Source: Terriglobia bacterium (GTDB taxonomy: Bacteria; Acidobacteriota; Terriglobia; Terriglobales; Acidobacteriaceae). From it: a DNA stretch of 64,000 nucleotides. The stretch covers positions 124,001-188,000 of the forward strand of contig JAIQFD010000003.1 in the NCBI GenBank assembly GCA_020073495.1, in the 5' to 3' direction. The position numbers and the translations under genes were made by a program. Positions 25,793-33,075 of this stretch are shown here, piece after piece (within the stretch, counting starts at the first letter, position 1; every line of letters starts with the position of its first letter). The notes below the pieces were generated by a model. It was not told the origin of the DNA. It ran no database searches and worked only from the letters and a program-made list of their open reading frames with translations.

Positions 25793-27037
25793 CTACTTCT
25801 CCATCGACGCTGTTTCCGCCCGGGCGGAGTAGCGCGATTCGACGTAACCATTCAGGATCTGGATGAATTCAGCAACGATATTGTCGCCCTTCAGAGTGGT
25901 CATCAACCGGCCATCCACGAAGACCGGCGCCTTGGGCTCCTCGAACGTGCCCGGCAGCGAGATGCCGATGTTGGCATGCTTGGATTCTCCGGGGCCGTTC
26001 ACCACGCATCCCATCACTGCGACCTTCATCTCTTCGATCCCCGCGTAACGCTCCTTCCACAGCGGCATCTGCTCCCGCAAGTACGTCTGGATCTGCTCTG
26101 CCATCGCCTGGAAGAAGGTGGATGTCGTGCGCCCGCATCCCGGGCACGCGGTGACCTGCGGGGTAAAGCTGCGGATGCCGAGCGATTGCAGGATCTGCTG
26201 CGCGACCAGGACTTCTTCGGTGCGGTCTCCGTTGGGCGCAGGCGTGAGCGAGACGCGGATGGTGTCGCCGATGCCTTCTTGCAACAGCACCGCGAGCGCT
26301 GCGCTCGAGCCCACGATTCCCTTTGCGCCCATGCCCGCCTCGGTCAGACCGAGGTGCAGGGCATAGCCGCAGCGCGCCGCCAGCGAGCGGTACACGTCGA
26401 TCAGGTCCTGCACGCCGCTCACCTTGGCGCTGAGGATGATCTGGTCCGGCCGCAGGCCGTATTTCTCGGCGAGCTTGGCCGAATTGAGCGCGCTGAGCAC
26501 CATGGCTTCCATCGTGACCTCGCGCGCGTCTTTGGGCTCGGCCAGGCGCGAATTGTCGTCCATGAGCTTGGTCAGTAACTGCTGGTCGAGCGAGCCCCAG
26601 TTCACCCCGATGCGCACCGGCTTCTGGTTCTCGACCGCGACCGCGACCATGGTGCGGAAATTGTCGTCGTCCTTCTTGCCGATGCTGACGTTGCCGGGAT
26701 TGATGCGGTACTTGGCTAGCGCTGTGGCGCACGCGGGATATTTCTTCAGCAGAATGTGTCCGTTGTAGTGGAAATCGCCGATGATGGGCACGCGCATGCC
26801 CTGCTTCTCGAGCCCTTCGACGATGGCGGGCAAGGCGGCCGCGGCGGCGTCGTTGTTGACCGTGACCCGCACCAACTCCGAGCCGGCGCGCGCCAGGGCC
26901 GCCACCTGCCGGATGGTGCCGGGGATGTCGGCGGTATCGGTGTTGGTCATGGATTGCACCACTACTGGTGCATCGCTGCCCACGCGCACTCCGCCGATCA
27001 CAACGGTTGCCGTCTTCCTGCGCTTGATTTCAGCCAT
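25793..27037 (-). CDS. ispG: 4-hydroxy-3-methylbut-2-enyl diphosphate synthase
   Basis: The 414-residue [4Fe-4S] enzyme of the MEP pathway converts MEcPP to HMBPP. The N-terminal TIM barrel is seen in [33 protein letters not shown] and [14 protein letters not shown]. The C-terminal cluster domain has [12 protein letters not shown] and [20 protein letters not shown], which supply the iron-sulfur Cys residues and the conserved Glu. rseP and dxr lie upstream on the same strand, separated by the defence-like island. In many bacteria these genes are neighbours, so the island probably splits an older cluster. Confidence 0.96.
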
Positions 27038-27445: not shown

Positions 27446-27481
27446 TTCTTTCACCGCCAAGGAAATCATCGATCCCCAGAG

Positions 27482-28438
27482 CTACCTTCTGACGGGGTTC
27501 ACCTTGTAATTCTTGTTTTCCTTCTTGGTCAGGTCGATGGGCACACGACTCGTCGTCATAGCCTCTACGAAGAACCGGTTCATCCACAGAACTTCTGTTC
27601 GAGTAAGATCCTTGCCCTTAGTATCACGGGTATGTGTCTTAATCGTCTTCCTTTTCCAACCTTCGCCCTTAGTCAGCGCTGAGTTGTAGAGCGGGTTGTC
27701 ATACCCGCTCACGAGGACCATGCATTTGGCTCGGCAGCACAGTTCGAGCAACTCCTCGTGAAACTCCTTGTCGTTTGCATCTATCTTGTATTTCGTATCT
27801 CTGTTCATGAGGTACGGCGGGTCCAAGTAGAAAAGAGTAGCCGGACGCTTATGGAACATTCTCAAGAGGTCTCGCGCGTCTTTGTGTTCAATGCGAACGT
27901 GTTTCAGCCGTTGCACGACCTTGCTCAGGCGCTCCGGTAGCGAATTCCACCGACTAACGCGAGCTTCTTGTCCGTTCCGGGTATAGGACTGAGAATATGA
28001 AAAACCACTATGCCTGACCCCCTGGCCATTGCTTCCCATCGCACCATTTACAGTCATCATGCAGGCCACGAGAAATCTTCGCGCACGCTCCAAGTCGCTG
28101 ACAGCGGCAGTTCGCCTGTATGCTCGTTCAAACTCTTCGCGTGCATAAGGCGTCAGTTCGATCTGCCGGATGAGTTTAGTGGGGTGGTCTCGAAGCTGGC
28201 GGAAGACATTAACTATCTGCAGATCAGCATCGTTTATGACCTCAATCGGGGCTGCTTTCTTCGCCATTGTTACTGCTGCTGAACCGCAGAAAGCCTCAAC
28301 CCAAGCGTTGTGAGGCGGAAGCATTTTCGCTATGTGCAGCGCCAAACGTTGCTTTGACCCAAAATAGCCAAAAGGGCTTTTGACGAATCCCTCAGATGAT
28401 TGACGAGCACCCTGCGCTACTGAAGCCTTATTTGGCAT
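27482..28438 (-). CDS. D12-class adenine-N6 DNA methyltransferase (Dam-like)
   Basis: The 318-residue enzyme is of the alpha (D12/Dam) class. The SAM-binding motif SPFGYFGSK (21-29) and VEAFCGSAA (47-55) come first, and the catalytic DPPY (206-209) follows within TLFYLDPPYL. The target-recognition region lies between. It should methylate adenine N6 in an unknown site. It is the last gene of a five-gene operon, 7 bases after the DUF3883-like gene, and would protect host DNA if the operon is a restriction system. The Lys/Arg-rich tail is unusual. Base composition is AT-richer than flanking core genes. Confidence 0.93.
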   Translation of the reverse strand: MPNKASVAQGARQSSEGFVKSPFGYFGSKQRLALHIAKMLPPHNAWVEAFCGSAAVTMAKKAAPIEVINDADLQIVNVFRQLRDHPTKLIRQIELTPYAREEFERAYRRTAAVSDLERARRFLVACMMTVNGAMGSNGQGVRHSGFSYSQSYTRNGQEARVSRWNSLPERLSKVVQRLKHVRIEHKDARDLLRMFHKRPATLFYLDPPYLMNRDTKYKIDANDKEFHEELLELCCRAKCMVLVSGYDNPLYNSALTKGEGWKRKTIKTHTRDTKGKDLTRTEVLWMNRFFVEAMTTSRVPIDLTKKENKNYKVNPVRR

Positions 28439-28445
28439 GTTGATT

Positions 28446-29453
28446 TTACAACTGCTGTTCTATCGGATTCCCTTTCAAATCAGACTCTACAATGAGCCCC
28501 TGTGGAACAGTTTTGAAGCGGCTATTTCCCAGAATGAAACTCCACGGGTCCTGGATCATGACGGGTTCGTCACGCGCAATTCCCTTTGCTACATCGATTG
28601 ATCCCTGAAAATAGATCCAGTAGTTCTTGCCTAATTTCTTTGCAACATTCATTTCGTTATCGCTCCAAAAGAACCGTATCTTGCGAGCTCGTGCGCCTTT
28701 GACTTCTATAAATCGGTCGTAGACAACCGCTGGAGATGGCCCGTCGAATGAGTCAATGTCATACCCCGCATTGACCCGTACGTTGCTAATGCGGCGAACG
28801 CAGCGAGCCTCGACAGCGTGCCCCAAGCTCAAAAGTCTGCGCGTTTCATAACCTCTCACCAGACTTTCGCCGAGGTTCCCGACCTCCTCTTTTTCCTTTA
28901 GATACTCTCTAAACTTCTCCTCGGACCAGCCGTCACCTTCCTCAAGGAAAATGGCTACTGTCTTCGCGTAAACTGCGCGCACTTCCCAGCCGTCGTCCGT
29001 CCGCTCTAAAAGTCCCAGCTGATTCAAATGCTCGGCGGCCCATTCGTTCTGGAGCGGAGAACTGTCGAACGAGGACCAGCGCAAGGACTCACCTTCGAGA
29101 GCTGGCGAGAACTCTTTCAGAATGCTTCGTGCTTCTTGTCGCAACGGGCCATGCAAATAGCACGTTCGCAACAGAACTTTCTTCTGTTCGTCTGACAAAT
29201 CGTACTGACTTGTCGGATTAAGCTTTATGAAACTGTCTCCGTCGTCCGTTAACTGAATCTCTGTACCCTCAGCTTGCAACAATCCGACTTGCTGAGCAAA
29301 CGAGATGCTGACTTCATGTTTAGGAATGCGCGCTTCGATGACGGTGCTTTTGCAGCGATCAATGACGGCGTCAATCTGTGCCGTTCTGTTGACATCACAT
29401 AACTCGTCAACAGCTAGAAGAACTCTATTTAGTTCCGCGAGCTTCTCAATCAT
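28446..29453 (-). CDS. DUF3883-like, PD-(D/E)XK-type putative nuclease
   Basis: The 335-residue protein has a helical, winged-helix-like N-terminal part (about 1-170) and a C-terminal domain resembling DUF3883 (about 190-300). That domain has GESLVRGYETRR, then NAGYDIDSFDG (228-238), RFIEVKGARA (247-256) and FFWSDNEMNVAKKLGKNYWI. The order Glu196, Asp232, Glu250-x-Lys252 fits a restriction-endonuclease-like active site, although this is by pattern only. Its start overlaps the helicase stop by 4 bases (ATGA), so the two are translationally coupled. It is the likely cutting or DNA-sensing subunit. Confidence 0.75.
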   Translation of the reverse strand: MIEKLAELNRVLLAVDELCDVNRTAQIDAVIDRCKSTVIEARIPKHEVSISFAQQVGLLQAEGTEIQLTDDGDSFIKLNPTSQYDLSDEQKKVLLRTCYLHGPLRQEARSILKEFSPALEGESLRWSSFDSSPLQNEWAAEHLNQLGLLERTDDGWEVRAVYAKTVAIFLEEGDGWSEEKFREYLKEKEEVGNLGESLVRGYETRRLLSLGHAVEARCVRRISNVRVNAGYDIDSFDGPSPAVVYDRFIEVKGARARKIRFFWSDNEMNVAKKLGKNYWIYFQGSIDVAKGIARDEPVMIQDPWSFILGNSRFKTVPQGLIVESDLKGNPIEQQL

Positions 29454-31351
29454 GCTGACTGGGATACTTGGCTCTGTCGCAGTTGTTCGACAAGAGCGGC
29501 AAAATCTCGATCTTCTTCTGTTTCCTCGCTGAACTCTGCAGCCCCATATTCGAGGCTCATTACCGCTATATCGTCGTCGAGTAGCGCTTTCATCCGGGCT
29601 TCTTTGTCAATCAATCGTTCATCGATTACCTCATCAATTGTGTCCTCGGCTTGCAGGAGGTAGTACTGCACTTTCGTGTTCGGATTCATCCCCACTCGGT
29701 GTATGCGATCCAGGGATTGCATGTAATGAGCTGCATTAAATGTGCGATCCAGATATATGGCATGGTTACATACCTTGTGTAGTGACACCGATTCTGCGCA
29801 TGCGCTTGGGTTCGCTATGAGGACGGGATAATCGGCAGAGCTTCGGAAGTCCTGAATCATTTGTTCCCGATTGAATTCGACATCTTCGTTCTCGTCCTTT
29901 GGAACGTCGCCGTAGACAATGCGAGGATGGAATTCCCTCAAGCTTTGTTCGAGAGTTCGTATGTTGTGAATAAAAGCAGTCCAGATCAGCACCTTCTGTT
30001 TTTTCCCTATCAGCTCCTTTGCAAGTTCGATCGCGAACTCCACCTTCACCGGAATCTCATATTTGTGATAGTCGCGAATAAGCTCATCGACCGGAAGTCC
30101 AGCTGCACTAAGAGGCGGAACTTGAAATTCGGTGGAGTGCTGAGTGAGCAGCGCGGGGTTCGAGGCTGCCTGCAGTAAGCGTACCATGCGCGCGGTGCGC
30201 CACAGCCGCAATCGTACTCTTTCAGTTGGTGCCTTTACGACATCCGACAAGACCTTGGCCGCAAGAGCTCTGTAAATTGCCTGCTGATAGGGACGAAGCG
30301 TGAGCGGGATACGCCGAAAGCGCGGATTTGGCAAACGAAGGTCCCTCTTTCGGGTCCGCCAATAAAAAGGAAACAATTGCTCCCTAAGCTGGTCTAGAGA
30401 GCCTGACTCCTCTTTCGTCACTTGACTTTTGAAATCCTCTCGCGTGCCGAGGATTGGGGGATTTGGCCACAGGAATGTCATTTGTGACCATAGATCCGCA
30501 GCTGAATTTGGGGCGGGTGTGCCCGTTAATATCATCCGCTTGGTTGCAAATGTGCCAATTTCGATTAGAGCGGGTGCCCAGATCCCGCCCTCAAGGCGCT
30601 TAATGTTGTGTGACTCATCCAATACCAAGAATGATTTGTTTGCCTGAAGAAAAGTCTCTAGCCTGTTCTGGTCTTTCGTCGCCATCTGGTACGTCATCAG
30701 TATCAATTCAGCTTTCTCGGCCTGGCGATAAAGCTTCATGCGTTGAGCTCGCGTACCAGAAATCCGAACAGTTCGCGGCTTGCGGCGAAGAGTCGCTTGA
30801 AACTCCTCTTCCCATGGAACGAACGAGGATCGCGGACCGACGACAATGATTTTGCGCACCTCATTGTTGGATCTGAGAATAGAAAAGACAGACAATGCAA
30901 CTGCGGTCTTACCGCTGCCGGGTACGGAGAAATTCGCGGCATTTCCCACAGCAATCGCATGTGCGATGGCTGGAATTTGATAGGGCTTAAGATCACGCTT
31001 CAGCTGGGGTACTTCAATTCTGCGTGGTGGCGAAGACTTGATAACAGCACCAGCGCTCTTAGCAGTCCCAAAGTCCTCGGCGGCAGCTTCAAAGCGGTTG
31101 ATTGCAGCCTCAGCACTAGCGTTTAACTCTGCGTGGACGTCCTGCTGCTGAAGATAATCAACAATGTCGAGCAGTAATGCGGGAGAGGCTGCCGAACTTC
31201 GGAAGTATCCAACAGGTTCGGTGCTTGGCTCGAATCCAAGAACATTAACGAAATAAACACGGTGCATTCCCGATAGGAGCGGCGAGCCTTTTGCAACTAC
31301 GATTGTCAAAGACTCTGGCTCAAGTCGAACCCGGACCGTGTCTCGGCTCAT
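29450..31351 (-). CDS. SNF2-type helicase/translocase of the defence-like operon
   Basis: The 633-residue superfamily 2 ATPase has an N-terminal unknown domain of about 115 residues, then LKPYQIPAIAHAI, Walker A VPGSGKT (143-149), DESH (245-248) and LTGTPAPNS (275-283). A C-terminal helicase lobe follows, with VLIWTAFIHNIRTLEQ and SLDRIHRVG. Usual SNF2 proteins have an MGLGKT Walker A; the 'NFSVPGSGKT' form here marks a separate branch. It would track along duplex DNA and drive the partner nuclease. Its start directly abuts the stop of the ParB-like gene and its stop overlaps the next start. Confidence 0.9.
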   Translation of the reverse strand: MSRDTVRVRLEPESLTIVVAKGSPLLSGMHRVYFVNVLGFEPSTEPVGYFRSSAASPALLLDIVDYLQQQDVHAELNASAEAAINRFEAAAEDFGTAKSAGAVIKSSPPRRIEVPQLKRDLKPYQIPAIAHAIAVGNAANFSVPGSGKTAVALSVFSILRSNNEVRKIIVVGPRSSFVPWEEEFQATLRRKPRTVRISGTRAQRMKLYRQAEKAELILMTYQMATKDQNRLETFLQANKSFLVLDESHNIKRLEGGIWAPALIEIGTFATKRMILTGTPAPNSAADLWSQMTFLWPNPPILGTREDFKSQVTKEESGSLDQLREQLFPFYWRTRKRDLRLPNPRFRRIPLTLRPYQQAIYRALAAKVLSDVVKAPTERVRLRLWRTARMVRLLQAASNPALLTQHSTEFQVPPLSAAGLPVDELIRDYHKYEIPVKVEFAIELAKELIGKKQKVLIWTAFIHNIRTLEQSLREFHPRIVYGDVPKDENEDVEFNREQMIQDFRSSADYPVLIANPSACAESVSLHKVCNHAIYLDRTFNAAHYMQSLDRIHRVGMNPNTKVQYYLLQAEDTIDEVIDERLIDKEARMKALLDDDIAVMSLEYGAAEFSEETEEDRDFAALVEQLRQSQVSQSA

Positions 31352-32518
31352 CTACTGCTCCTTCGTGGCACTCATGAGCCGATCTACTTCCTTTTTCAAT
31401 TGCGCCAGGAGATTTCTGGAAGCAGTCTCGCTGAGCTTCTTATGGTCAGACCCGATCCCTTGTAATGCCGAAAGTGCCTTTCTAAGGAGCCGCTCTGGTC
31501 GGTTATGACTTTCCTGTGCTTCTACGATTTCCTTCGCTGTGGCAAAACTCTCTTCGAGGCTATCTTTGGATTGCGCAGCAGGTTTCTTAGGGTCGTGATG
31601 TCTGAGCAATTCCACGTATGCACTCGGTTCAAGAGCGATCTTATTCAGCAGGCGAATGTCCCAGTGGCTTAGGTCAGTCTTCGAGATTAGCAAAAAGGCA
31701 AACATCAAGAGCTTTGCGATTTCAGAATCCTTGACGCCTTTCCTTTTCAAAGGGGCGCAAACATTAGCCTGCAAGCTATTGAATTTTTCGACGCTCCTTT
31801 CGTCTTGCACGATGTGATACTGCTCGGGCTTCCCGATGAAGTCGAGGTAGCTCTCAATAAGTTTGAGGATTGCAAGTTTCTCTTCAACCCTGACGGACGT
31901 GAAACGCCCGAGCAGGATACGTGATATTTCAGCTGTGGTGAGGCCGTTCTCTCGTCCCTCTTTGAGCTTTAACAGTTCGTTAATTGGGCTGTAATCGAGT
32001 CGAAATTCTTTCGCAAATTGAAGTCCAGCTTCAATTCTCCAAATATCCTTCTCGTCGACGTCTTTTGGCAGTCGCGCGACACGCAGGTATTCGAACGCTG
32101 GATCTTGTTCTTCTTCATAAAGAGCCATGAGAATAGCCATACGCCGATTAGCGTTGATGACTGCTCCATCACGCGTTATTACTCCAGGGTCTAGCTGGCC
32201 GTTGCGCTTTAGATCGGCCATTAGAGCCTCTGTCTCGTTCGGGCTTATCTCAAGTAGGATGTTCTGGATTACCTTCGCATCTTGTGGATTTGCTGCATCA
32301 AGCTTGCGATTGAGTTGATCTTCCTTCGCGAGAAGCTCCGCCGCAAACCGACCATTCCTGATGTTGAAGATCAGGTACTTGATTGGTATTCGGTATACCT
32401 GCAGATGCTTCGGCTTGCCCTTTAGAACGAGTCTAAGTTTCTGATCGTCCAGAGCGTCATTGTTGTTGGCGACGTAAGCATCTATCTGCTTCTCGCGGAC
32501 GGTTTCCAATTTCATCAA
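31352..32518 (-). CDS. ParB/sulfiredoxin-fold protein
   Basis: The 388-residue protein has an N-terminal ParB/Srx-like domain at about 38-150. It contains YRIPIKYLIFNIRNGRF and, after GQLDPGVITRDGAVI, the phosphate-binding type motif NANRRMAIL (122-130). A long helical C-terminus follows, including an HTH-like segment (GLTTAEISRILLGRF). ParB-fold proteins of this kind bind or hydrolyse NTPs and appear in partition, in DNA sulfur modification (DndB-like) and in other defence loci. No ParA or parS site is nearby. The ATG at 32518 is used; it abuts the helicase gene, pointing to one mRNA. Confidence 0.8.
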   Translation of the reverse strand: MMKLETVREKQIDAYVANNNDALDDQKLRLVLKGKPKHLQVYRIPIKYLIFNIRNGRFAAELLAKEDQLNRKLDAANPQDAKVIQNILLEISPNETEALMADLKRNGQLDPGVITRDGAVINANRRMAILMALYEEEQDPAFEYLRVARLPKDVDEKDIWRIEAGLQFAKEFRLDYSPINELLKLKEGRENGLTTAEISRILLGRFTSVRVEEKLAILKLIESYLDFIGKPEQYHIVQDERSVEKFNSLQANVCAPLKRKGVKDSEIAKLLMFAFLLISKTDLSHWDIRLLNKIALEPSAYVELLRHHDPKKPAAQSKDSLEESFATAKEIVEAQESHNRPERLLRKALSALQGIGSDHKKLSETASRNLLAQLKKEVDRLMSATKEQ

Positions 32519-32579
32519 AGCGCCTTTCTCCAGCTACGCGCGCGACGCAGTGAGACGGGTCATTGACGGTTCAACTCGG

Positions 32580-32837
32580 TCAAATACTGGTCACGGTCAG
32601 GTGGTAAGTGCCATCCGTTTTGCGTTTGTCGAATCTATACCCGGTCAGTTCAATCTCTGCCCAATCCTGAGTAACGGCGAGCAATGCTCGCGCGAGATCG
32701 ATTGCCTGGTCTCGCGTGAGCTTTATGCCGATGGTCTTGAGATCTTGAACGTTTTTCTTCGTGTTCTCGACAGGGTAGATGCGCGCGCAGCGTAGATTTG
32801 GGTTGATGCTTATCGCACGAGGCGATTTCCTCGACAT
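32580..32837 (-). CDS. Small protein heading the defence-like operon
   Basis: The 85-residue product begins MSRKSPRAISINPNLRCARI and contains LTRDQAIDLARALLAV and TGYRFDKRKTDGTYHLTVTS. This looks like a small helix-plus-strand domain and is credible as protein. It precedes the ParB-like gene by 61 bases on the same strand. It could be an operon regulator, an inhibitor or a structural partner. No family is recognised and no strong ribosome binding site is seen, so it is less certain than the genes that follow. Confidence 0.55.
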   Translation of the reverse strand: MSRKSPRAISINPNLRCARIYPVENTKKNVQDLKTIGIKLTRDQAIDLARALLAVTQDWAEIELTGYRFDKRKTDGTYHLTVTSI

Positions 32838-32911
32838 AGCGGTGCTTCCAGGCGAGCAATAGGAATCGGCTGCCCAGAGTACAGCAACTCAACCGAGCCG
32901 TCCAACGATTC

Positions 32912-33073
32912 TCACTGCTCACAACCAGCCAGTTGGGCGAGCGCCTGCCAGTGCCGTGGATGTGGCCGCCTCCCGGCGCGGATCGCGGATGCGTACGGCT
33001 TGGATACACCGAGTAGCGTCGCGATCTTGGAGTTACTGAATCCCCGCAGCAGGGGGCGAACCCTGTCCGCGTA
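32912..33073 (-). pseudogene. Truncated helix-turn-helix remnant
   Basis: A minus-strand frame ending at TGA 32912-32914 encodes RGFSNSKIATLLGVSKPYAS and then AIRAGRRPHPRHWQALAQL. This is the recognition-helix part of a small HTH protein seen widely in bacteria. No start codon precedes it, because the frame runs into the 3' end of rseP. It is best read as the surviving C-terminus of a gene destroyed at the edge of the island. Confidence 0.55.
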
Positions 33074-33075
33074 GC

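What the first reader, a model, noticed from the sequence alone, without database searches (positions are those of the whole stretch)
27482..32837. Candidate undescribed defence operon: small protein, ParB-like, SNF2 helicase, DUF3883-like nuclease, adenine methyltransferase
Seen: five minus-strand genes in one line. The helicase start abuts the ParB-like stop, the DUF3883-like start overlaps the helicase stop by 4 bases, and the methyltransferase follows 7 bases later. Their DNA is AT-rich (22 G+C of 60 at 28621-28680, 24 of 60 at 31981-32040, 29 of 60 at 30001-30060, against 40 of 60 at 26221-26280). Known: D12 methyltransferases, SNF2 translocases, PD-(D/E)XK nucleases and ParB/Srx folds each recur in restriction and DNA-modification systems. 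Inference: methylation marks self, the helicase scans, the nuclease cuts, and the ParB-like NTPase gates. The set lacks BREX, DISARM, Dnd/Ssp and type I hallmarks known to me.
Basis: partly seen in the sequence, partly recalled or inferred. Interest (0 to 1): 0.88.

Follow-up and report, generated by a model that had tools for sequence, protein, structure and literature searches.

The report
Uncatalogued ParB–helicase–nuclease restriction-type operon
A ParB-like clamp protein, a SNF2 motor and a DNA-cutting enzyme recur together, usually beside a DNA methylase, in bacteria and archaea, and look like a restriction-type defence that the defence catalogue searched here does not list.

Summary
Four minus-strand genes (27482-32518) form a tight operon: ParB-like, SNF2 ATPase, NOV_C/DUF3883 nuclease and D12 adenine methyltransferase, in an AT-richer stretch between rseP and ispG. 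The 85-aa fifth ORF has no relative in the loci searched and is probably not part of it. Around the best 80 of 310 SNF2 relatives in genome contigs, a ParB relative lies directly upstream in 79, NOV_C directly downstream in 76, and a methyltransferase within two genes in 61. Anchored on ParB instead (1,089 genomes of three phyla), 17 of 18 hits have the SNF2 gene, 12 NOV_C, 16 a methyltransferase. The methyltransferase belongs to four classes, with at least six changes on the SNF2 tree, so ParB-SNF2-NOV_C is the core. The window's four-gene order recurs in Elusimicrobiota and Bacteroidota. The ParB-like model (pLDDT 94) matches ParB/Noc/KorB; NOV_C models as winged-helix plus PD-(D/E)XK with conserved catalytic residues. 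PADLOC gave no system match. A 2013 paper already reports SNF2 fused to DUF3883 in RM operons; my searches showed no paper on the ParB-centred set. Defence itself is inferred.

The parts
31352..32515 (-). ParB-like protein (387 aa from ATG; TTG start at 32518 also possible)
   Evidence: No significant Pfam hit; AF2 pLDDT 94.2; VIA Z 8.1-10.9 to KorB, Noc and ParB chains, the top 12 rows; hhalign vs 10 chromosomal ParBs E 7.9e-6, prob 84%; directly upstream of SNF2 in 79 of 80 loci
29450..31351 (-). SNF2-family ATPase/translocase (633 aa) with GSGKT, DESH, TGTP and DRIHR motifs
   Evidence: PF00176 E 1.3e-25; motifs; 310 relatives in genome contigs, best 80 examined
28446..29453 (-). NOV_C/DUF3883 nuclease (335 aa): N-terminal winged-helix region about 1-174, PD-(D/E)XK domain about 183-335
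   Evidence: PF13020 E 8.3e-15; G230, D232, K252 invariant and E250, V251 at least 90% in 42 rows; AF2 pLDDT 90.1, pTM 0.58; VIA matches to Hjc and SPARDA nuclease domains and to FokI/N.BspD6I recognition regions
27482..28438 (-). D12-class N6-adenine DNA methyltransferase (318 aa), DPPY motif at residue 206
   Evidence: PF02086 E 2.4e-20; 60/59/52% identical D12 in the same position in L010/L011/L013; DPPY
27446..33075 (.). AT-richer stretch between ispG and rseP (50.9% GC vs 63.0%), probably an insert
   Evidence: rseP found 0.06-3.2 kb upstream of ispG in 21 of 29 family relatives, not found in 8 (6 of these with about 15 kb looked at); window gap about 6 kb

Best explanation
It is an ATP-dependent restriction-modification-type operon with an uncatalogued core. 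Proposed action: (1) the D12 enzyme methylates adenines at a host motif (inferred from family); (2) on DNA lacking the mark, the ParB-like protein binds through its helix-turn-helix and closes as a nucleotide-gated clamp (fold predicted, activity inferred); (3) it recruits or activates the SNF2 translocase, which hydrolyses ATP along DNA (inferred from motifs); (4) the NOV_C protein, winged-helix DNA binding plus PD-(D/E)XK, is brought to the DNA and cuts it (catalytic residues shown, cutting inferred). The trio ParB-SNF2-NOV_C is the restriction arm, coupled in evolution to methyltransferases of at least four classes. Shown by computation: gene content, co-occurrence, motifs, predicted folds. 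Inferred: defence, order of steps, and which subunit reads the sequence.
For: SNF2-anchored survey: ParB directly upstream 79 of 80 (the miss, L016, starts at a contig end), NOV_C directly downstream 76 of 80 (two of the four misses are cut by contig ends), MTase within two genes 61 of 80. MTase hits within two genes of the core: 70 of 309, against 8 of 730 at four genes or further, over 89 loci. Pairwise identities of ParB and SNF2 correlate at r 0.97 over 2701 pairs. At least 6 MTase-class changes on the SNF2 tree. 22 of the 80 loci have a C5 MTase and a DpnII/BanI-like REase gene, 4 more the REase-like gene alone. Conserved nuclease residues. Found on plasmids, in phage records, in archaea and bacteria.
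Against: No experiment. Many C5-type loci have a type II-like REase gene of their own, so the trio could be accessory or regulatory there. Partial correlations did not single out a subunit that shares specificity with the MTase. The glycine of the ParB GxRR motif is alanine in the window protein. Six of 18 ParB-anchored loci lack NOV_C, one of them cut by a contig end; of seven plasmid/phage records looked at, three have NOV_C and four an MTase within two genes. 19 of 80 loci have no MTase recognised within two genes, 8 of them with no gene held on one side. No promoter or terminator beyond chance.
Confidence: 0.62

Rival explanations
1. The trio is an accessory or regulatory module of ordinary RM systems: ParB-like and SNF2 proteins control expression, loading or turnover of the methyltransferase/REase, and NOV_C is a back-up nuclease or not the restriction enzyme.
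For: 22 of 80 loci pair it with a C5 methyltransferase and a DpnII/BanI-like gene; in those loci every part co-varies about equally with the MTase.
Against: In the D12, DUF1156 and N4/N6-only loci, the window's included, no DpnII/BanI-like gene is labelled beside the trio (not all unlabelled neighbours were examined); the MTase changes class while the trio stays.
Confidence: 0.2
2. Modification-dependent system: the complex attacks DNA carrying a mark, or the MTase makes a signal rather than protection (Type IV-like).
For: The winged helices of NOV_C could read modified DNA; its N-terminal region is among the most divergent parts.
Against: Stable linkage of a resident MTase to a nuclease would be self-toxic unless the mark protects (reasoning); the MTase classes make different marks (by family, recalled) with the same core.
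Confidence: 0.08
3. Mobile-element maintenance or partition module: ParB and SNF2 act on plasmid or prophage DNA for stability, and linkage to MTases is selfish addiction.
For: Matches to the ParB-like protein in 74 plasmid and 4 phage records; fold of partition proteins.
Against: The window's operon has no ParA gene among its five ORFs and lies between housekeeping genes; no ParA family was among the 25 commonest neighbour families listed, which is not a full search; NOV_C and MTase genes accompany most of the 80 loci examined.
Confidence: 0.08
4. Chance neighbourhood of unrelated genes.
For: None beyond the lack of Pfam matches of the ParB-like protein.
Against: 79 of 80 and 17 of 18 co-occurrence; none of the 78 viral-contig loci with less similar SNF2 proteins (L092-L169) has the ParB neighbour.
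Confidence: 0.01

Closest known systems
CglI / NgoAVII ATP-dependent RM systems (abstract of PMC4267653 read)
   Same: Methyltransferase plus separate restriction protein plus separate helicase-like ATPase; ATP hydrolysis needed for cleavage.
   Different: Three genes, DEAD-family ATPase and no ParB-like protein in the abstract; here SNF2, NOV_C and ParB-like. Homology of the proteins was not tested.
SNF2 helicase fused to DUF3883 in RM operons (PMC3710099, passages)
   Same: SNF2 and DUF3883, named there a novel REase domain, in RM context.
   Different: There fused and in operon with a HEPN-AAA+ protein; here separate genes with a ParB-like protein upstream.
BREX-related (BR) systems (PMC12839542, passages)
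   Same: SNF2 helicase, N6-MTase, nuclease; RM-like action proposed.
   Different: BR helicases carry TUDOR and inactive REase domains; no ParB-SNF2-NOV_C core in the passages seen.
Zorya ZorD, DISARM DrmD, Dpd DpdE
   Same: SNF2 ATPase domain.
   Different: Far below NCBIfam cut-offs: ZorD 50 of 1500 bits, DrmD 55 of 950; no partner proteins of those systems among the five.
ParB/Noc/KorB CTPase clamps
   Same: Predicted fold, N-domain and HTH.
   Different: In an MTase-SNF2-nuclease operon without a ParA gene in the window; CTP binding untested.
PD-T4-1, TmtA, PDC-S36 (PADLOC)
   Same: NOV_C region only.
   Different: The match covers about 100 residues of larger or different proteins.

Membership tests
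Restriction-modification (broad sense) | DNA methyltransferase gene linked to restriction gene(s) | tested here: met
   window D12; 61 of 80 loci with MTase within 2 genes; 70 of 309 near vs 8 of 730 far
Restriction-modification (broad sense) | Nuclease with intact catalytic residues | tested here: met
   GYD...EVK conserved in A8, NOV_C Pfam match in 79 of 85 downstream genes
Restriction-modification (broad sense) | Cleavage of unmodified, protection of modified DNA | not testable with these tools
   needs experiment
Type I RM | HsdS and HsdM subunits | tested here: not met
   no such match listed for the five proteins
DISARM | DrmA, DrmB, DrmC with DrmD/DrmM | tested here: not met
   no DrmB or DrmC match listed; SNF2 protein 55 bits vs DrmD cut-off 950; DrmA 13 bits
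BREX | BrxC and PglZ | tested here: not met
   none listed for the five proteins; only weak BrxH matches of the SNF2 protein
Zorya | ZorA/ZorB motor with ZorD | tested here: not met
   no ZorA/B listed; ZorD 50 bits vs cut-off 1500
Dnd/Ssp | DndCDE or Ssp modification genes | tested here: not met
   none listed; 17 bits to dnd_restrict_1 against a cut-off of 600
CglI/NgoAVII-type | homologous R- and N-proteins | not tested
   gene roles look alike; protein homology not tested
ParB family | ParB N-terminal and HTH domain fold | tested here: met
   KorB 8qa9 Z 10.9 over 181 residues (rmsd 4.9), Noc 7nfu Z 10.0 over 195 (3.7); top 12 rows are ParB/Noc/KorB, some with rmsd over 10; hhalign E 7.9e-6. 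Predicted model only.
ParB family | Pfam ParB_N (PF02195) match | tested here: not met
   not listed for any of 87 members at E <= 0.01; weak ddrB-ParB in 5, HTH_ParB in 1, PF08775 ParB in 1
ParB family | CTP binding and hydrolysis, clamp closure | not testable with these tools
   N124 R125 R126, E163 and Q167 invariant in 87 rows; activity unknown
PD-(D/E)XK nuclease | fold and D..ExK residues | tested here: met
   D232, E250-V-K252; VIA Hjc Z 8.4-9.1, SPARDA nuclease Z 9.7; Foldseek alone gave no E <= 0.001

The most novel reading that the evidence does not exclude
A new class of restriction system in which a ParB-type, nucleotide-gated DNA clamp loads at unmethylated sites, slides, and hands the DNA to a SNF2 motor and a FokI-like (winged-helix plus PD-(D/E)XK) nuclease, with interchangeable methyltransferases supplying self-marking. 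It would be the first use of a KorB/Noc-type ParB clamp in restriction known to me.
Probability: 0.33. Interest if true: 0.87.

Novelty: new variant of a known kind. Interest (0 to 1): 0.72.

Why it matters
A recurrent gene unit (310 SNF2 relatives in one species-level collection, 80 examined; ParB-like hits in about 0.5-2% of the sampled genomes of four phyla) that spans bacteria and archaea, plasmids and phage records has no system match in PADLOC 2.0.0. If it restricts phage or plasmid DNA, it adds an architecture to restriction and would make testable whether ParB-type clamps, known from chromosome segregation, can serve as sensors or processivity factors in immunity. The exchangeable methyltransferase offers a natural experiment on how specificity is shared between modification and restriction.

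Tried and rejected
The 85-aa ORF as a fifth component: rejected, no relative in the loci held (not repeated on loci fetched later).

Finding the specificity subunit: partial correlations of each part with C5-MTase identity, given SNF2 identity, were 0.19-0.34 for every part in C5+R loci; in C5 loci without R they were -0.08 to 0.11, but 0.32 for the NOV_C C-terminal part. No subunit stands out. The NOV_C N-terminal region is among the fastest-diverging parts (mean identity 0.22 where the SNF2 core is 0.55-0.70 alike, against 0.30 for the SNF2 N-terminus and the ParB C-terminus), which fits target recognition but proves nothing. FokI likeness: 2fok Z 8.5 over 155 residues (rmsd 3.7), N.BspD6I Z 8.5 over 152 (rmsd 4.0), tied with many single winged-helix rows; suggestive only.

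Known-system matches of the SNF2 protein are domain-level. Prophage phi1207.3/SpyI was checked as a possible published example and is a different set (passages of PMC4260502); passages of PMC3459991, PMC6098607 and PMC10853773 held no such set. Nine paper searches listed no paper whose title, abstract start or passages I saw describes a ParB-SNF2-DUF3883 set; I looked into seven papers only, by passages or abstract. By the tool's statement no bioRxiv library and few subscription journals are held; REBASE and newer DefenseFinder lists could not be searched.

Viral contigs with the ParB-like protein alone gave no relative; with the SNF2 alignment two of the 80 kept loci (L090, L091) carry the pair. 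Promoter/terminator scan at chance level; no repeat that looks like an insertion scar. Solved-structure sequence searches: nothing for the single ParB-like protein; with the profile, ParB rows at E 0.04-0.15 behind designed helical proteins.

Site of insertion: 30 loci were kept of 58 genomes with ispG, so 29 relatives were looked at; in 6 of the 10 fetched further out no rseP was found in about 15 kb, so the order is not conserved in all.

Labels: D12, C5, N4N6, DUF1156, DpnII/BanI-like and NOV_C per locus come from HMMs iterated here from seeds. The window's D12 and NOV_C seeds are Pfam-supported; the C5 seeds and the L005 N4/N6 seed carry record annotation. The L008 N4/N6 seed, the DUF1156 seed and the DpnII/BanI-like seeds were labelled by eye, with Pfam counts for the pooled neighbours only. 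Any placement of the window's organism is untested; no tool named it.

Dropped before counts: loci L001-L003 (short copies) were left out of the ORF survey, 74 of 89 loci entered (those with full ParB and NOV_C); structure alignments used 46 and 42 chosen rows.
Full report
Observation. Searches confirm five minus-strand ORFs at 27482-32837, the stated junctions and the base counts. The stretch 27446-33075 has 50.9% GC against 63.0% elsewhere in the window, and low GC3. It sits between rseP and ispG. Of the 29 best-matching family relatives held (58 of 60 genomes had ispG), 17 show rseP upstream of ispG within the 1.5 kb held. Ten of the twelve others were fetched further out: four show it at 1.5-3.2 kb, six show none in about 15 kb. 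The window's gap is about 6 kb. So the operon is probably an insert at a variable spot of an order kept in 21 of 29.

Components. Pfam gives a D12 adenine MTase, a NOV_C (DUF3883) protein and a SNF2 ATPase; the ParB-like and 85-aa proteins have no significant match. PADLOC lists single-protein or single-domain hits: for SNF2 ZorD, DpdE, DrmD, PbeA, HmaA, BrxH and others, for NOV_C PDC-S36, PD-T4-1 and TmtA, for D12 MTase models and PD-Lambda-5_B, and none for the ParB-like protein. Of 87 ParB-like members, 3 weakly match JetC, 1 a type IV REase model (E 5.6e-20) and 1 CasR. NCBIfam scores lie far under the cut-offs.

Recurrence, anchored on SNF2. A scan of genome contigs with the SNF2 alignment gave 310 relatives; the best 80 were kept and examined, 230 were not. 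With ORF calls and HMMs iterated here, 79 of 80 have the ParB-like gene directly upstream (L016 starts at the contig end), and 76 of 80 have a NOV_C gene directly downstream. Of the four without, L015 and L060 end there, L048 has a D12 MTase instead, and L084 has a gene without Pfam match. Pfam finds NOV_C in 79 of the 85 downstream genes scanned. As a control, the 78 viral-contig loci with less similar SNF2 proteins (L092-L169) have the ParB neighbour in 0 cases.

Recurrence, anchored on ParB. Profile searches of three phylum samples (398, 345 and 346 genomes, centres included) gave 18 hits besides the three centres at E <= 1e-20. In 17 of 18 the SNF2 gene follows (in L278 and L282 it looks broken up, in L279 it is cut by the contig end, in L280 the ParB gene is short and another ORF intervenes; L271 has none); 12 of 18 have NOV_C; 16 of 18 have an MTase within two genes of the core. 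In the window's own phylum 10 of 396 genomes match at E <= 0.001; 3 are full-length (the window's own included), each in such an operon, and 7 are weak partial matches. Seven plasmid or phage records were looked at (L004-L007, L244-L246): all have the ParB-SNF2 pair, three have NOV_C, four have an MTase within two genes.

Methyltransferases. Among the 80 loci, an MTase lies within two genes in 61: C5 in 44 (22 of them with a DpnII/BanI-like REase gene, one also with an N4/N6 gene), DUF1156-type in 8, D12 in 5, N4/N6 alone in 4. Eight of the 19 without one have no gene held on one side. Over all 89 loci, hits within two genes are 70 of 309 against 8 of 730 at four genes or further. On the SNF2 tree (quick method, some long branches) the four classes need at least 6 changes. 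The window groups (98% SH-aLRT) with two Elusimicrobiota loci and one Bacteroidota locus that have the same order ParB-SNF2-NOV_C-D12 (D12 60, 59 and 52% identical) and with a Micrarchaeota locus that has an N4/N6 MTase on the other strand. L017 has a 58% identical D12 upstream. ParB and SNF2 pairwise identities correlate at 0.97 over 2701 pairs of 74 loci, NOV_C N- and C-terminal parts at 0.82 and 0.86 with SNF2: the trio is inherited together, across domains of life.

Structure. The ParB-like model (46 rows, pLDDT 94.2) matches KorB 8qa9 (Z 10.9, 181 residues, rmsd 4.9), Noc 7nfu (Z 10.0, 195, 3.7), pNOB8 ParB-N (Z 9.7, 225, 4.5) and Caulobacter ParB 6t1f (Z 9.4, 179, 4.2); ParB, Noc and KorB chains fill the top 12 rows, some with rmsd over 10. 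The tool warns that helical models can reach such Z by chance; the consistency of the list is what persuades. In Foldseek the Noc row has E 4.1e-4 and the next eleven are ParB-family chains. hhalign against ten chromosomal ParB proteins of relatives gives probability 84%, E 7.9e-6, aligning the invariant N-R-R with G-E-R-R and running into the HTH. N124, R125, R126, E163 and Q167 are invariant in 87 rows; the preceding glycine is alanine in the window. The NOV_C model (pLDDT 90.1, pTM 0.58) has a winged-helix N-terminal half and a PD-(D/E)XK C-terminal half: Hjc Z 8.4-9.1, SPARDA nuclease Z 9.7, FokI and N.BspD6I recognition regions Z 8.5. Foldseek alone gave nothing at E <= 0.001, so this rests on the second aligner, the motif and Pfam.

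Mechanism. From these parts I propose an ATP-dependent restriction-modification system (see Best explanation), with confidence 0.62. It works most like CglI/NgoAVII, where a separate helicase-like ATPase is needed for cleavage by a separate restriction protein (abstract of PMC4267653). It is not shown to be a member of that kind. The place of the ParB-like protein (clamp, sensor or regulator) is open.

Novelty. PMC3710099 (passages) already notes SNF2 fused to DUF3883, as a REase domain, in RM operons. Nine paper searches turned up nothing that I could see on the ParB-centred set; their limits are stated in Tried and rejected. I therefore call it a new variant of a known kind.

Noticed in passing
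window 32912-33040 (minus strand): Open stretch running out of the rseP 3' end, ending in a helix-turn-helix-like sequence followed by PRHW; looks like a remnant C-terminal HTH of another protein at the edge of the insert (seen by eye in a translation).
   Followed up: no
L006 (Streptococcus prophage Javan191) and L044: The SNF2 protein of the prophage record is nearly identical to that of an uncultured Lachnospiraceae genome (end branches 0.004 and 0), pointing to recent transfer of the C5+R form or to a contaminating or misassigned contig.
   Followed up: no
L019, L020, L026: Three archaeal loci (two Nitrososphaerota, one Nanoarchaeota) carry two tandem ParB-like genes before SNF2.
   Followed up: no
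L004, L007, L270, L272: ParB paired with a longer SNF2 protein (851-867 aa) and no NOV_C gene; the extra N-terminal part looks PLD-like by eye, and L007 has an annotated MutH/Sau3AI-type endonuclease beside it.
   Followed up: partly
L005: Enterococcus plasmid in which ParB and SNF2 follow an annotated site-specific MTase and type III restriction endonuclease, without NOV_C.
   Followed up: no
alignment A8, one row not traced to a locus: One downstream protein matches a Thoeris ThsB TIR model (E 9.5e-46), so a TIR domain may replace or join part of the third gene in one locus.
   Followed up: no
L014 3379-4857, L016 2841-4322: Two archaeal loci have a 492-493 aa gene with an Rsm22 match (a methyltransferase-like family, recalled) downstream of NOV_C and no recognised DNA MTase.
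   Followed up: partly
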